Below are positions 8,327-61,244 of a DNA stretch of 64,000 nt, piece after piece. A program made the position numbers and the translations under genes. A model generated the notes under the pieces. That model made no database searches. It was not told where the DNA came from and saw only the letters and a program-made list of their open reading frames with translations. This DNA is from Candidatus Gastranaerophilales bacterium. Its GTDB lineage: Bacteria; Cyanobacteriota; Vampirovibrionia; Gastranaerophilales; Gastranaerophilaceae. The stretch is from contig CALVFU010000001.1 in assembly GCA_944326905.1 (NCBI GenBank), positions 1 to 64,000 on the forward strand, read 5' to 3'. Every line of letters begins with the position of its first letter. Position 1 is the stretch's first letter.

Positions 8327-9439
8327 TTATTTTTTACGTACTCTAGGTGATGTGTTAATTTTCATTAAGCCGGTTGATGCGTCTATTGTATATGGTGCGT
8401 CTTTGTAATCACTTGCAAAGTTGTAATCAGATGCTTTACCTTTGTTTTCGCCTTTGACGCCGTCGCTTATGTTTTTGATTTTAAACTGCTTATTAGTACC
8501 GTCAACGGCTTCAAAGTCATAACATAAACCATATTCGCCAGATACATTGCTGTTATCTATTGTTAATGATATTTTCTTATCTTCAGCTTGTTTTACATTT
8601 GATATCGAACCATGAATGTAGCGTTGTTGGACATACGGACCTTCGTTCTTAGCGACATCGACTACAATTGAAGGGTCTAAAGCACATAACAATTCAAGTT
8701 GTTTCAATTTGCCAAAGTCGGTTGTAAATTTGTAGTTGCCGGTTTCCGAATTTATAAGACCTTTAAGAATTTCTTTTAAACCAGTTATAATTGTTGTTTT
8801 TTGTTCTACTGTAAGTTTATTGATGTTTTTCAATAATTCATCAATATTTTCAGTTGTTAATAGTTTGTTAAGTTCATTTGGATCAGTTGTTATTTTCTTA
8901 CCGTCTAGTATATCTTTAACTGTTCCGGCAGTTTCTTCAGTTTTTTTCTTTTCTTCTGCTTCTTCAGTTTCTTCTGTTTCCTCGGTTGTTTTAGTTTTTT
9001 TAGTTTCCTCAGTCTCTTCAGTTTCTTTAGATTTTCTTGTTCTAATTCCAAGATAAGAGTATTGTCCGGGGATATAGGAGGTATCTATAGTGCTTCTGTG
9101 CCCGCTATTACCGCAAGTACAGCCTGCTCCTGGATAATAACCGCCTGCTTGCTGGCTGCCGCCAAACAAATTGCCGAATAAGCCGCCTCCGCCGAATAAA
9201 CCGCCAAACAGACCGCCTCCGCCGAATAAACCGTTAAACAAGCTCATTCCAAGTCCAAGACCGAGCCCGCTGCCAAGCATTGACCAGAAACCGCCGCCAA
9301 AACCAAAACCAAATCCACCTGAACAATAAGAATGACTTCTTGATGCTCCGCTGAATATATTAATTTGTTTTGTGTTTCTAATACTTACACCGCCGTGGCA
9401 ATGTCTTGCGTCTAAGTTGCATGGTATAACGTGAACCAT
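8327..9439 (-). CDS. hypothetical protein with GLFG repeats and acidic linker
   Basis: A 370-residue protein of unrecognised family with four visible parts. The N-terminus (1-40) has several Cys and His residues. A Gly/Phe-rich segment (41-94) contains four GLFG units. A Glu/Thr/Lys low-complexity linker (about 139-172) is built of TEE and KKTEE units. A folded-looking C-terminal half (about 180-370) ends in basic PRVRKK. There is no signal peptide. FG/GLFG segments are cohesive, low-complexity sequences in nucleoporins; here that is only a compositional resemblance. The gene is monocistronic and ends at the shared terminator. Confidence 0.6.
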   Translation of the reverse strand: MVHVIPCNLDARHCHGGVSIRNTKQINIFSGASRSHSYCSGGFGFGFGGGFWSMLGSGLGLGLGMSLFNGLFGGGGLFGGLFGGGGLFGNLFGGSQQAGGYYPGAGCTCGNSGHRSTIDTSYIPGQYSYLGIRTRKSKETEETEETKKTKTTEETEETEEAEEKKKTEETAGTVKDILDGKKITTDPNELNKLLTTENIDELLKNINKLTVEQKTTIITGLKEILKGLINSETGNYKFTTDFGKLKQLELLCALDPSIVVDVAKNEGPYVQQRYIHGSISNVKQAEDKKISLTIDNSNVSGEYGLCYDFEAVDGTNKQFKIKNISDGVKGENKGKASDYNFASDYKDAPYTIDASTGLMKINTSPRVRKK

Positions 9440-22953: not shown

Positions 22954-25008
22954 ATGCAAATTAATTCTATAAATACAAATAATATCCCCCAAAAACACGT
23001 ATCTTCTCCTGGTTTTAAAGGGTACAGCCGTGTACAGTTAGATAATGCGATAAAATTTAGACGCAAAAATTCAATAATAAAATCAGCTTATAATATATTG
23101 AGGCTGCTTAATACAAAAAATTATAAACTATTTATAAATATAATAATAAGTGCCGTTTTAGCAGGGAATTTAAGACGGATTTTCAACTCGGCAGATCCGT
23201 TAAGTAAACAAGTAACAGACATCCTAAAAAATCCAAATTTGAAATCCAAAATAATAGAAGAATACAACGAAGCTGCGGATAAAGAAGAACTTTATTCACC
23301 CGCAGGTGATTTAAAGTTAGATGAACAGACTCCATACATTGCAAGTAAAATAGAACAGCTGGTTACTCCTAAAAATAAAACTGCCTTCGCAAAAATTATA
23401 AATAACAAATTACTTGAGGATGAAGATTTAGTTGGATATTTAATGTGTGTTTCAAATTATTCGGAAGCTGAAAAAGAAAATTTGTTTAAAAATTTAGATA
23501 CGGGACTTGGTGATTATTTAAAAAGTATTGCCGCAGATAATCGGCACCCGCTGAGAAAAAACCTTAACACTATGGATTTTGCACAAAACGGTTCAGATTT
23601 TGTATACTTAGTAAATAATCTTATGAATAATAATATTGCTCTTATGAATTTATTAAAGTATCCATTTGAGAGTAAAAAACACTTTAATACGGCTTTACGT
23701 GATGTAGGTTCATTGATGGGGACGATTTATAGGAATGAGCGGGCTTTAGTTCTTGATAATCCTAACAAGATATCTGATTTAAAATATTTCTTTTCCATAA
23801 GTTTTCCAAGCATAATCGGAATGACTGCACTTACTGATAAAGAAACTGTTTTACAGCTTTTTGACCGAGGCTTTGAGCAAGTACAGTATTATACAATGGC
23901 ATTAAAAAAAATGAGTTCGAATGATGAAAAACTTATTAATACTGTGGTAAGAAAAGGGAAAAAAATAAATAAACTCGGAGCCGAGGTAAATATTCCTGCA
24001 AAGGACAAAGTTTACATGTATAAACTTATTGCGTTAAATAATCTTAAGTATGCTGCTTTACTTGAAAAAATAGACTTAAACAGCGCAATTTCCGCTTCAA
24101 AAAACAATAGCGGCGTTTATATCGATTTTAATAAAATCGGACAGCAGATAAAGCAGTGCGTACTAAGCAGGTGCGGCTTTAGTACAGAAGAAATCCAAAA
24201 CCTTGCGCCTGAAAATATGGATTGGGATATTTTAAATATTCATTTATTATCACGAGTTTCAATAGATGATGCGCTGAAAACTATTGTAAAAAGTGCCTCA
24301 GAAGGAAAATTTAACGAATTAATAAATGATCCGTTTAACAAGTACGGATATGCAAATATGAAAACACAAGAGGCATTTAAAGAGGCTGGATTGGACTATG
24401 ATGTATGGACTAACGGTATTGAAGCGGTGGAGTTTGAAATTAACGGTGAAAAATATACAATTTCCATTTGGAAACGACGCCCGCAAGAGTCTATTTTTAA
24501 CGGGAATTATACTTCTTGCTGTACAGGCATAGGAGAAGCACAGGGGGCTTCTATGCCTTATTATCTTTTAAATACAATGTTTAATGTTGCTGAAGTTAAA
24601 AATGAAAAAGGTGAAACAATTGCACAATCAAGAATGTTTTTAATAGATAAAGATTATCCCATTCTTATAATTGACAATGTAGAAGTAAATAACAACTTTA
24701 AAAAGAAACTTGTTACTTATAAACAGAAACAAGATTTTATGGAAAAGATTTTTTCATATGAAAGAAAATTTGCACAAAAACTAGCCCCATGGAATATTAG
24801 TTTATTTTTCTCAAGTGAAAATAATAAGTTATTACCAAAAGAGCAGCTCAATTATCCTAAAGTACAGTGGTACATCCGCTCAACAGTCGGCGAATTATCA
24901 GACGAAAACGTATATTGCAATATTATCACATCCAGCTTTAGGAATTTAATAAAATCATTTGTAATACCTTATGATATTACTGAGCCGCCCAAAGAGACTT
25001 CTTTTTAA
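22954..25008 (+). CDS. large PGFKG-motif hypothetical protein
   Basis: A 684-residue protein of unknown family. The N-terminus (INSINTNNIPQKHVSSPGFKG) ends in the PGFKG motif seen also at 9658-9972. A long helical region follows (about 30-470) with one hydrophobic stretch near 55-75. The C-terminal third has a conserved-looking domain with YTSCCTGIGEAQGASMPYY and IAQSRMFLIDKDYPILIIDN. This last domain loosely recalls PcfJ/GNAT-like modules with a Cys/His active site, but I cannot confirm that. It is monocistronic; ribosome binding site not evident. Confidence 0.6.
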   Translation: MQINSINTNNIPQKHVSSPGFKGYSRVQLDNAIKFRRKNSIIKSAYNILRLLNTKNYKLFINIIISAVLAGNLRRIFNSADPLSKQVTDILKNPNLKSKIIEEYNEAADKEELYSPAGDLKLDEQTPYIASKIEQLVTPKNKTAFAKIINNKLLEDEDLVGYLMCVSNYSEAEKENLFKNLDTGLGDYLKSIAADNRHPLRKNLNTMDFAQNGSDFVYLVNNLMNNNIALMNLLKYPFESKKHFNTALRDVGSLMGTIYRNERALVLDNPNKISDLKYFFSISFPSIIGMTALTDKETVLQLFDRGFEQVQYYTMALKKMSSNDEKLINTVVRKGKKINKLGAEVNIPAKDKVYMYKLIALNNLKYAALLEKIDLNSAISASKNNSGVYIDFNKIGQQIKQCVLSRCGFSTEEIQNLAPENMDWDILNIHLLSRVSIDDALKTIVKSASEGKFNELINDPFNKYGYANMKTQEAFKEAGLDYDVWTNGIEAVEFEINGEKYTISIWKRRPQESIFNGNYTSCCTGIGEAQGASMPYYLLNTMFNVAEVKNEKGETIAQSRMFLIDKDYPILIIDNVEVNNNFKKKLVTYKQKQDFMEKIFSYERKFAQKLAPWNISLFFSSENNKLLPKEQLNYPKVQWYIRSTVGELSDENVYCNIITSSFRNLIKSFVIPYDITEPPKETSF

Positions 25009-25019
25009 ACAAGCGGACT

Positions 25020-25394
25020 TTACGGGGTAATATATCCGCCCGCCATATCTGACTGAACGTGACCATTCGGCGTAAAATACCCGCCCATTCCGTCTGATTG
25101 AATGTGACCATTAGGCGTAAAATATCCGCCCATACCGTCTGACTGAATATATCCTTGAGGCGTAAAATATCCGCCTGCCATATCTGATTGAATATGTCCT
25201 TGAGGCGTAAAGTACCCGCCCATACCGTCTGACTGAATGTGACCATTAGGTGTAAAGTACCCGCCCATCCCGTCTGACTGAATATGCCCCTGTGGCGTAA
25301 AATACCCGCCCATTCCGTCTGATTGAATATGTGCTGCATAAACAGCATTTGCCAGTAATATCACTATAAATATTGCTGCCGTTTTTTTTATCAT
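25020..25394 (-). CDS. secreted protein made of seven 15-residue repeats
   Basis: A 124-residue protein: signal peptide (MIKKTAAIFIVILLANAVYA) and then nothing but seven tandem units of the form HIQSDGMGGYFTPxG, the last one shortened by two residues and ending at TP. Units vary mainly at GM/MA (units 4 and 7) and N/Q. There is no other domain. Gly/Tyr/Ser-rich repeats of this size suggest an extended beta or matrix-like structure outside the inner membrane. No family was recognised. It stands alone, convergent with the 684-residue gene 11 bases away. Confidence 0.75.
   Translation of the reverse strand: MIKKTAAIFIVILLANAVYAAHIQSDGMGGYFTPQGHIQSDGMGGYFTPNGHIQSDGMGGYFTPQGHIQSDMAGGYFTPQGYIQSDGMGGYFTPNGHIQSDGMGGYFTPNGHVQSDMAGGYITP
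25023..25331 (-). repeat. seven 45-bp tandem repeats
   Basis: Six full 45-bp units plus a 39-bp unit encode the HIQSDGMGGYFTPxG repeats. Unit sequences differ at wobble positions, so the array is not freshly duplicated. Copy number may vary between strains by slippage or recombination. Confidence 0.9.
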
Positions 25395-25519
25395 ACTTTA
25401 ACTCCGAAATTCCTACAGTTTAATTTTAATGCATACGTTTAATTTTTTCAATATTGCACCAAAAATATAGGTAATAAGAGTAATATTTTTTTTAAGAACT
25501 AATTTTTCTTGATTTAATG

Positions 25520-25525
25520 TATAAT
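25520..25525 (+). promoter_or_regulatory. TATAAT box seven bases before a start codon
   Basis: A consensus TATAAT ends 7 bases before the ATG at 25533. No ribosome binding site lies between. Transcription would start at or next to the A of ATG, making a leaderless mRNA. A -35 element is not evident. Confidence 0.4.
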
Positions 25526-25532
25526 ATTTACT

Positions 25533-26228
25533 ATGAATAATGAATTTGAAAATAATCAAACTAATTCAAATCCTTTTGGGGCACCTGATTTTACAATTGA
25601 AGATATCGGTTTAGATGCAAACATGTCTGAAGACGCCGGCTATCTTCCATCAATTGCAGCCGGAGAACACAGGCTCAATGATCTTGACAGCAACCTTTTT
25701 AGCGAAAGTGCCTATAAGGGTGTTGATAATGAAGTTTTTCAATTAGAATATAAAATTAACAGAACAGAAAACAAGTTAAAACGCATACAGGCAAATATTG
25801 CAAGTGCAGCAGCTATTAACGATATACAGCAGCTAAAAATACTTCATCAAAAAAAAATACAGTACGAAGCGGAGTTAAAAAAACTCTATTATAAATACAA
25901 TAACCAGGGTTTGTCATCTAAAATATCAGGGGAGCTTATTAATATTGTGACCAAGAATCCAACACGCTCTGCCGAGTATATTCGTAAAGCTTTTGAATTT
26001 TTAAATAAAAATATTTTTTCTAAATTCTTAGAAAAATTTGATTCTGCAATTCCTATAAAAGAAGCACTAGTAAAACTCGAAACAATAAATCAAAATGTTG
26101 ACGAACTAGTATCCAGACAAACACCATACGGCGAATCGCCTGAAAAATACACGAGGCTGCTTCAATATTTAAATAAAGCTAATAATATACAATCCCAAAT
26201 TTCACAAATAGTAAAAAAATATAAATAA
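25533..26228 (+). CDS. hypothetical coiled-coil protein
   Basis: A 231-residue soluble protein. The N-terminal 70 residues are Asn/Asp-rich and probably disordered (NNEFENNQTNSNPFGAPDF). A coiled coil spans about 70-125 (VFQLEYKINRTENKLKRIQANI then LKILHQKKIQYEAELKKLYY), followed by a helical C-terminal domain. There is no signal peptide and no family assignment. It precedes the ferredoxin-nitroreductase gene by 25 bases. Confidence 0.55.
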   Translation: MNNEFENNQTNSNPFGAPDFTIEDIGLDANMSEDAGYLPSIAAGEHRLNDLDSNLFSESAYKGVDNEVFQLEYKINRTENKLKRIQANIASAAAINDIQQLKILHQKKIQYEAELKKLYYKYNNQGLSSKISGELINIVTKNPTRSAEYIRKAFEFLNKNIFSKFLEKFDSAIPIKEALVKLETINQNVDELVSRQTPYGESPEKYTRLLQYLNKANNIQSQISQIVKKYK

Positions 26229-26253: not shown

Positions 26254-27087
26254 ATGCAAAAGAATCTGGTAGTAAATAAGGAGAAATGCATTTCGTGCGG
26301 TTTATGCATAAAAGATTGTATTGCCGCAGCTCTGGAGTTTGACACTGATAAACATCCACAATTTACTAAAGATGGTGAAAACAGGTGTCTAATGTGCCAG
26401 CATTGCCTCTCAGTCTGTCCCGGCGGGGCAATATCTATTCTTAATAAAACACCAGACAATTCAGAAGAATTAAAGCAGCCCGATTCAGAAGTAGTTTTAA
26501 ATGCTCTTAAATACAGACGCAGTACCAGAATTTTTAAAGAGGAAAATGTCTCGGAAGAAATAATAGGAAAATTAAAAGCAGCACTAAATTATACTCCTAC
26601 CGGGTGTAATAATCGCAAACTTCTGTTTACCATTACTGAGACGAAGCAAGAAACTGACCAAATAAGGAAGTACGTTACAAACAGACTTATTAAATTATTA
26701 AAATTCCTGCCGTTTGCAGGTCCGGCTAAAAAATTTGCACATTACAAAAATATGTTATTAAGCGGTAAAGATGTTATTTTTAGAGGCGCACCTCATATTA
26801 TTATTGCCTCTTCTCCAATTAATGCTCCCTGCAGAGACATTGACCCGATTATTGCATTAAGTTATTTTGAACTTTACGCAAATTCCCTGGGCGTTGGTAC
26901 ATGCTGGTGCGGATTTGGAGAAGCCTGTTTTAAAATTTTACCTGAATTGAAATCAATATTTAACATACCTAAAGATTATAAACCTGTATATGTTATGTTG
27001 TTTGGTATTCCAAATATAAAATACTCAAGAACTACTCAGCCGGAACCGTATACATTTGTTAGGTCTAATTTGGATTTAATAAAGTAG
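26254..27087 (+). CDS. ferredoxin-nitroreductase fusion oxidoreductase
   Basis: A 277-residue protein. Residues 1-60 form a two-cluster ferredoxin: C12, C15, C18, C22 and C45, C48, C51, C55. A nitroreductase domain follows, starting YRRSTRIFKEENV, then TPTGCNNRKLLFTI, and ending near YVMLFGIPNIKY. The fusion could pass electrons from the 4Fe-4S clusters to FMN. This domain order is common in anaerobes; substrates are unknown. AAAAGGAG precedes the start. It suits an anaerobic lifestyle. Confidence 0.88.
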   Translation: MQKNLVVNKEKCISCGLCIKDCIAAALEFDTDKHPQFTKDGENRCLMCQHCLSVCPGGAISILNKTPDNSEELKQPDSEVVLNALKYRRSTRIFKEENVSEEIIGKLKAALNYTPTGCNNRKLLFTITETKQETDQIRKYVTNRLIKLLKFLPFAGPAKKFAHYKNMLLSGKDVIFRGAPHIIIASSPINAPCRDIDPIIALSYFELYANSLGVGTCWCGFGEACFKILPELKSIFNIPKDYKPVYVMLFGIPNIKYSRTTQPEPYTFVRSNLDLIK

Positions 27088-60269: not shown

Positions 60270-61244
60270 ATGGGTTTAATTTTTAGTATAGCTCTGGTTA
60301 TTTTACTTTGTGTTTATTTAGCAAAAGGTATTTATATTGTAAAACAGGCCGAAGCTGTTATTGTAGAACGTCTTGGAAAGTTTGACAGAATGCTTTCGCC
60401 TGGGCTTAATTATATTATTCCATTTATCGAAAATACTAGAGGTATAACCTGGAAAATTACACATAAATCATTAGACGGCTCAACTTATTCTTATGTAAAA
60501 GAAATTGATAGAATTGATTTAAGAGAAACTGTTTACGATTTTCCGCGCCAGAATGTCATTACTAAAGATAATGTAACAATAAGTATTAACGCGCTTATTT
60601 ATTTCCAAATTGTAGAACCTAAATCAGCAGTTTATGAAATTACAAACTTGTCTGATGCTATAGAAAAACTTACCCAAACAAGTTTAAGAAACCTTGTAGG
60701 TAAAATGGATTTAGATGAATCGCTTGTTTCAAGAGATCACATAAATAAAGAACTGCGGATGGTATTAGATGATGCAACTAATAAGTGGGGGGTTAAGGTA
60801 AACAGAGTAGAACTTCAAGATATTATCCCTCCAAAGGATATTCAGGCTTCAATGGAAAAACAAATGAAGGCAGAACGTGACAGACGGGCTACAATCCTTG
60901 AAGCAGAAGGACTTAAAACTGCTGCTATTCTTAAAGCGGAAGGGGAAAAAGAAGCGGCTATTAATATGGCAGAAGGTGAAAAACAAGCCGCAATCCTTCG
61001 CGCTGACGGTGTTGCCCAAGCCCGTATACTGGAAGCAGATGGTGAAAAAGAAGCTATTAGAAAAATTATTGAAGCACTTCAGGGCAACGGGCAGCCTGAT
61101 AAATACTTAATTGCTATGAAGTACCTTGAATCATTAGAAACGATTACATCAGGTAAGGATAATAAAGTTATTTATATGCCTTATGAAGCAACAGGTATTT
61201 TAAGCTCAATAGACGGTATTAAGCAAATGCTTAGTAAAAGTTAA
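60270..61244 (+). CDS. SPFH/band-7 membrane protein (QmcA/stomatin-like)
   Basis: A 324-residue protein. One N-terminal membrane helix (about 3-20), then an SPFH domain with KQAEAVIVERLGKFDRMLSPG and FPRQNVITKDNVTISINALIYFQI. A C-terminal coiled coil has repeated AEGEKEAA and ADGEKEA units. It forms large ring oligomers in the inner membrane, often with NfeD, and may recruit proteases such as FtsH. AAAGGAG precedes the ATG. Confidence 0.9.
   Translation: MGLIFSIALVILLCVYLAKGIYIVKQAEAVIVERLGKFDRMLSPGLNYIIPFIENTRGITWKITHKSLDGSTYSYVKEIDRIDLRETVYDFPRQNVITKDNVTISINALIYFQIVEPKSAVYEITNLSDAIEKLTQTSLRNLVGKMDLDESLVSRDHINKELRMVLDDATNKWGVKVNRVELQDIIPPKDIQASMEKQMKAERDRRATILEAEGLKTAAILKAEGEKEAAINMAEGEKQAAILRADGVAQARILEADGEKEAIRKIIEALQGNGQPDKYLIAMKYLESLETITSGKDNKVIYMPYEATGILSSIDGIKQMLSKS

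What the first reader, a model, noticed from the sequence alone, without database searches (positions are those of the whole stretch)
25020..25394. Secreted protein consisting only of seven 15-residue repeats
After the signal peptide there are seven HIQSDGMGGYFTPxG units and nothing else. Synonymous divergence among units suggests selection to keep the protein repeat. It may be a surface or matrix protein or a modified peptide precursor.
Basis: partly seen in the sequence, partly recalled or inferred. Interest (0 to 1): 0.55.

Follow-up and report, generated by a model that had tools for sequence, protein, structure and literature searches.

The report
Secreted all-repeat protein of gut bacteria
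A small exported protein of a gut bacterium is built almost only of a 15-residue unit repeated seven times, and closely similar genes occur in an unrelated group of gut bacteria; it is a real, selected and apparently undescribed family whose job is still unknown.

Summary
In detail: 25020-25394 (-) encodes 124 aa, a Sec-type signal peptide followed by seven head-to-tail 15-mers. Four of seven units match HIQSDGMGGYFTPxG exactly; the last has 13 residues. It is a gene: synonymous change dominates among units only in the annotated frame (pooled dN/dS 0.105), six genus members share a promoter-like block, and all six other genus genomes examined carry it. The host is a Gastranaerophilales relative. 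The same architecture is clear in 13 of 56 genomes of the Succinivibrionaceae family (E<=1.1e-20) and on one prophage-like contig. Seventeen of 28 complete members have six canonical units; in one, six units end a larger protein. No Pfam, NCBIfam or PDB family fits. No neighbour recurs between genera; YcaO and CsgG were not found in the genome, weighing against a YcaO-made peptide or curli. Best reading: a fixed-size exported array of about six beta-hairpins used as a binding or structural module. The fold is unproven: two AlphaFold runs gave pLDDT 44 and 42.

The parts
25020..25394 (-). whole gene, 124 aa plus stop (TAA 25020-25022)
   Evidence: orthologues; dN/dS
25335..25394 (-). Sec-type signal peptide, residues 1-20, cut predicted after VYA (rule-based)
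25287..25331 (-). unit 1 HIQSDGMGGYFTPQG
25242..25286 (-). unit 2 HIQSDGMGGYFTPNG
25197..25241 (-). unit 3 HIQSDGMGGYFTPQG
25152..25196 (-). unit 4 HIQSDMAGGYFTPQG
25107..25151 (-). unit 5 YIQSDGMGGYFTPNG
25062..25106 (-). unit 6 HIQSDGMGGYFTPNG
25023..25061 (-). unit 7 HVQSDMAGGYITP (13 residues, end of protein)
25402..25405 (-). GGAG, possible Shine-Dalgarno, 7 nt before the ATG
   Evidence: sequence read by eye
25423..25451 (-). promoter-like TTGAAA-17-TAAAAT; the block around TATG[CT]ATTAAAAT is kept in six genus members

Best explanation
A stand-alone exported protein of fixed size made of one short unit. Shown: a rule-based Sec signal, seven 15-residue units, purifying selection on the units, its own promoter-like block, orthologues in the genus and similar proteins in Succinivibrionaceae. 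Inferred: each unit is a beta-hairpin (strand GYFT, turn P-[DN]-G, strand HIxS, turn DGxGG), and about six of them stack into one small beta-solenoid-like module in the periplasm or outside the cell. Guessed: the array presents a row of equal sites (His, Asp and aromatic side chains at the same place in each unit) that bind a repetitive ligand such as an envelope or gut glycan. The family has probably moved between gut bacteria; direction is unresolved.
For: Coding-frame dN/dS 0.105 against 1.26 and 3.4 in the other two frames. Conserved upstream block. 6 of 6 other genus genomes. 13 of 56 genomes of the Succinivibrionaceae family at E<=1.1e-20. Six canonical units in 17 of 28 complete members, seven in 4, and a six-unit array as the C-terminal part of a 278-residue ORF (L054): this size constancy speaks for a folded module rather than an open-ended disordered chain. 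Spacing is 15 or 16 throughout. Of 134 full units: D5 in 130, aromatic 10 in 127, H1 in 111, G15 in 120, [DN]-G at 14-15 in 90; D/N-G and P-D-G as tight turns is recalled knowledge. DSSP on both AlphaFold models puts short strands at GYF and HIQ in the units.
Against: Both AlphaFold models have very low confidence (mean pLDDT 44.0 and 41.9, pTM 0.26), built on only 4 and 5 sequences, so the fold is not shown and disorder is not excluded. No solved structure matches (best E 2.8 and 0.33, both chance level). Nothing at all shows a ligand. Members with 3 and 4 units exist (85). The six-unit mode may partly reflect common ancestry rather than constraint.
Confidence: 0.4

Rival explanations
1. A disordered, Gly/Tyr/Pro-rich elastic or matrix protein (resilin- or silk-like) that works by length and stickiness and not by a fold.
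For: Low AlphaFold confidence; 25 Gly, 8 Tyr, 6 Phe in 104 residues after the signal peptide and no Cys, Lys or Arg in the window protein. The only paper of the library with a related 6-mer was a caddisfly genome paper (listing only, not read).
Against: Unit number is narrow (17 of 28 with six) and the spacing is rigid, including in a two-codon rearrangement (SDGMGG to SDMAGG) that keeps 15 residues.
Confidence: 0.22
2. A functional amyloid subunit, working like CsgA (small exported protein of imperfect strand-turn-strand repeats that polymerises).
For: Same gross plan: signal peptide plus 5-7 imperfect repeats. In units from 15 genes, positions 3, 7 and 11 are alike within a protein (0.77, 0.66, 0.82) but not between proteins (0.27, 0.20, 0.35), as in-register ladders would want.
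Against: No Curlin repeat match among Pfam hits; CsgG was not found in the genome, while the same search rang in E. coli. The within-protein likeness is also what lineage-specific array rebuilding would give. Other amyloid export systems were not searched.
Confidence: 0.12
3. A precursor of a modified peptide (RiPP) or of several short peptides cut from the array.
For: Near-identical repeated cores; a nitroreductase-family gene lies two genes away (26254-27087).
Against: That neighbour is an Fer4-nitroreductase kept only within the genus. No neighbour family recurs between genera. YcaO was not found. The window array holds no Lys, Arg or Cys.
Confidence: 0.07
4. A metal- or calcium-binding exported protein, one His/Asp site per unit.
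For: H1 in 111 and D5 in 130 of 134 full units.
Against: L053 lacks the His in its units; D-G and N-G are equally explained as turns; no EF-hand or RTX profile came up.
Confidence: 0.12

Closest known systems
Choline-binding repeats / ββ-solenoids (CW_binding, e.g. LytA, CbpL)
   Same: Short aromatic-Gly unit with an [DN]-G turn; choline-binding modules are built of one beta-hairpin plus a short linker per repeat (PMC4471590, abstract seen in the listing). The best PDB sequence match was a pneumococcal surface protein, but at E 2.8.
   Different: 15/16 instead of about 20 residues, no Trp pair, no Pfam match; cells are not Gram-positive with choline (recalled). A resemblance, not membership.
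CsgA / curlin
   Same: Small exported protein of five imperfect repeats (abstract of PMC9900396 and others in the listing).
   Different: Different unit, no Curlin hit, no CsgG in the genome.
MORN_2 (PF07661)
   Same: Short Gly/aromatic hairpin-like repeat; weak match to one stretch.
   Different: 14.3 bits against a cut-off of 29.6.
Alphaproteobacterial lipoprotein-like proteins with DGxGG..LPNG units (L032 Microvirga plasmid, L066)
   Same: Exported, period about 15, [DN]G and GG[YFL] motifs.
   Different: Four looser units after a long linker with a Cys near the start; E 1.7e-8 and 3.6e-6 with the profile; common origin uncertain.

Membership tests
Choline-binding repeat (CW_binding) | match to the Pfam profile | tested here: not met
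   no CW_binding family among hits at E<=10 for the window protein or at E<=1 for any of 10 members
Choline-binding repeat (CW_binding) | about 20-residue unit with conserved Trp | tested here: not met
   unit 15 or 16, no Trp in the window protein
Choline-binding repeat (CW_binding) | beta-hairpin per unit in a solenoid | tested here: inconclusive
   strands predicted per unit but pLDDT 44 and 42
Curlin (CsgA) | curlin repeat profile | tested here: not met
Curlin (CsgA) | CsgG secretion channel in the genome | tested here: not met
   0 matches in own genome, 94% complete; control rings in E. coli
Curlin (CsgA) | amyloid fibre formation | not testable with these tools
   needs protein
RiPP precursor | linked modifying enzyme | tested here: not met
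   no recurrent neighbour in 21 loci; YcaO absent; other enzyme classes not searched
MORN_2 | Pfam gathering score | tested here: not met
   14.3 bits against 29.6

The most novel reading that the evidence does not exclude
A new repeat family: a mobile, gut-associated, six-hairpin exported module shared by two bacterial phyla, whose units are kept alike as protein within each species (positions 3, 7 and 11 switch together) although the DNA of the units has lost its likeness in 8 of 15 genes. This would mean selection for unit-to-unit matching, as in a stacked ladder or a multivalent binding row.
Probability: 0.25. Interest if true: 0.6.

Novelty: new variant of a known kind. Interest (0 to 1): 0.4.

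Why it matters
Small exported repeat proteins are easily skipped by annotation; here one is shown to be a conserved gene with relatives in two phyla of gut bacteria. If the hairpin array is real it is a compact, simple repeat scaffold, and its sharing between gut lineages points to a function in that habitat. The case is also a clean example of protein-level repeat conservation without DNA-level repeat conservation.

Tried and rejected
Pfam, NCBIfam, PHROGs and PDB sequence searches gave nothing above a curated cut-off. One PHROG of unknown function (phrog_32767) matched the protein at E 3e-6, but a search of the own genome with that model did not ring at this gene (one match elsewhere, E 0.24; 5 of 14 unrelated controls rang), so I treat it as a composition match. 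tblastn against phages found nothing; plasmids gave only weak places. AlphaFold twice, low confidence both times, so no fold search was run. A tree of 24 members is unresolved (0 of 21 inner branches starred, both clades need 6 changes): cross-phylum transfer is plausible, direction is not shown. Super-periods of 2 or 3 units looked attractive by eye, but permutation does not support them, except L054 (lag 2, p 0.0035, a row that also held a spurious segment); the splitting of the window row was off by one residue in two places, so its lag values are not used. Weak hits rejected after reading: L008-L011, L013-L016 (other proteins or low complexity), L044, L046, L047 (G485) and L045 (G505). Active codon diversification among units was considered: no gene exceeds its codon-shuffle expectation clearly, so no evidence. 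The within-protein likeness of positions 3, 7 and 11 cannot be told from lineage-specific array rebuilding; the L002/L004 pair, in unit register (p 0.002, one of 78 pairs tested, uncorrected), differs at position 3 in all six units, which is suggestive only. Paper searches on the motifs and the host groups found no description; the library is partial. No paper was opened; what is cited comes from listings.

Full report
What is there. On the - strand at 25394-25020 lies an ORF of 124 codons. Its first 20 residues fit a Sec signal peptide by a simple rule (two Lys, a hydrophobic core of mean Kyte-Doolittle 2.98, VYA before the cut). From residue 22 on there are seven units at an exact 15-residue spacing and nothing else. 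TRF finds the 45-base period and a 135-base (three-unit) period.

It is a gene. Among the seven units the pooled synonymous difference is 0.55 and the nonsynonymous 0.10 (dN/dS 0.105); read in the two other frames of the same strand the ratio is 1.26 and 3.4. The long ORF in another frame (24977-25348) is therefore a shadow of the 45-base period. A GGAG lies 7 bases before the ATG, and a TTGAAA-17-TAAAAT site lies upstream; in an alignment of six genus members the block TATG[CT]ATTAAAAT, with TTG before it, is kept, while 7 promoter-like sites were found in the 701 bases scanned against 3.7 expected by chance, so the pattern alone proves little. The gene is divergent from a 231-residue gene at 25533 and convergent with a 684-residue gene ending at 25008, so it stands alone on its strand.

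Distribution. It is single-copy in its genome. All 6 other genomes of the genus have it (one cut by a contig end), and five genes on its right side are kept in order with it. In a sample of the host's family, 12 of 383 genomes match the profile at E<=1e-5: 7 of the own genus, 2 of g25, 2 of g8 and 1 of g2; the two g8 genomes have 6 and 8% contamination and deserve caution. An identical protein to that of one genus member lies in a named Candidatus Gastranaerophilales MAG (L021), which places the host. Outside, the named scan of genome contigs gave two further hits, both labelled Succinivibrionaceae or Anaerobiospirillum, Gammaproteobacteria. In the family of G292, 22 of 56 genomes match at E<=1e-3; 13 of these at E<=1.1e-20 with arrays I could read; of the other nine, two (G485, G505) are false on reading, some are looser variants (G321, G594, G605, G615) and the rest were not resolved. 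In the order of G292 8 of 295 matched at 1e-4, all eight being genomes of that same family, and in its phylum 2 of 398 at 1e-5: G292 itself and one GC-rich genome with a looser lipoprotein-like variant. In the host's phylum 4 of 292 matched, all of the own genus. So the compact form is concentrated in two distant gut lineages. The scan of named genomes used exact peptide seeds and would miss many members (it missed the seven-unit L036), so other phyla are not excluded.

A mobile copy. A viral-collection contig (L065) holds a six-unit member between a phage terminase large subunit and a late transcriptional activator, with an Abi-like gene and a DNA methyltransferase following: cargo of a prophage, by position. 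Its host is not known to me. In all, 21 loci with 234 ORFs were compared; apart from the repeat gene itself no gene family recurs between loci, except a syntenic block in three loci of one group (L082-L084), and clusters confined to the host's order were not printed. The neighbours are unrelated; this is my reading of the ORFs, not tested by profiles.

Anatomy. In 29 proteins (one truncated) strict counting gives six units in 17 of 28 complete ones, seven in 4 (the window gene among them), four in 6, three in 1; two of the four-unit proteins (L006, L053) carry extra decayed units by eye. Spacing is 15 or 16. In 134 full units D5 occurs in 130, the aromatic at 10 in 127, a beta-type residue at 2 in 128 and at 11 in 127, G15 in 120, H1 in 111, P13 in 96, [DN]G in 90. 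GG at 8-9 was used as the anchor and is not a result. In L054 the six-unit array is the C-terminal part of a longer ORF (278 residues, its start uncertain).

Evolution of the units. In 8 of 15 genes the synonymous codons of the units are no more alike than codons shuffled within the gene (more than 15 of 300 shuffles at or below the observed value); the window gene still shows kinship between its units (0 of 300), as do L049 and L051 most clearly. Yet units are 80% alike within a protein and 62% between proteins, the gap lying at positions 3, 7 and 11. This may be selection for equal units or arrays rebuilt once per lineage and then conserved; I cannot separate the two.

How it may work. My best account is a fixed-size array of beta-hairpins, exported and acting as a binding or structural module. 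The hairpin rests on the turn-like P-[DN]-G and DGxGG motifs, the alternation with aromatic and beta-branched residues, and short strands in two low-confidence models. The ligand is a guess. Rivals are a disordered matrix protein, an amyloid subunit, a metal binder and a peptide precursor; the last two and curli are weakened but only by partial tests.

Known or new. No library here has the family and no paper in the library held DGMGGY. It works perhaps like choline-binding repeats but is not a member: profile and unit length fail. I rate it a new variant of a known kind, small exported repeat proteins, of moderate interest.

Noticed in passing
L065:4998-5327 (+): Six-unit member carried as apparent cargo in a prophage-like region, next to an AIPR/Abi-like gene and a cytosine methyltransferase.
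   Followed up: partly
L031:3650-5166 and window 22954-25008: Several proteins of this order begin with a short F-x-[AG]-[KRY] motif within the first 30 residues (3 of 9 ORFs in L031 against 0 of 9 at residues 60-90; in the window 3 of 63 against 3 of 63, so no excess there). Possibly a sorting signal in some paralogues.
   Followed up: partly
L036:908-1174 (+): A second small exported protein with looser DG/Y repeats directly upstream of a seven-unit member; a similar one precedes the member in L050.
   Followed up: no
L032:3809-4189 and L066:1501-1911: Lipoprotein-like proteins of Alphaproteobacteria-type genomes with about four related 15-residue units and a C-terminal Cys pair; possibly a distant branch.
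   Followed up: partly
window 25395-25532: Intergenic region between two divergent genes with an invariant ATTATACATTAAA in six genus members, probably the other gene's promoter.
   Followed up: no
window 8920-9035, 9183-9240, 60924-60988: Other tandem repeats found by TRF, not examined.
   Followed up: no
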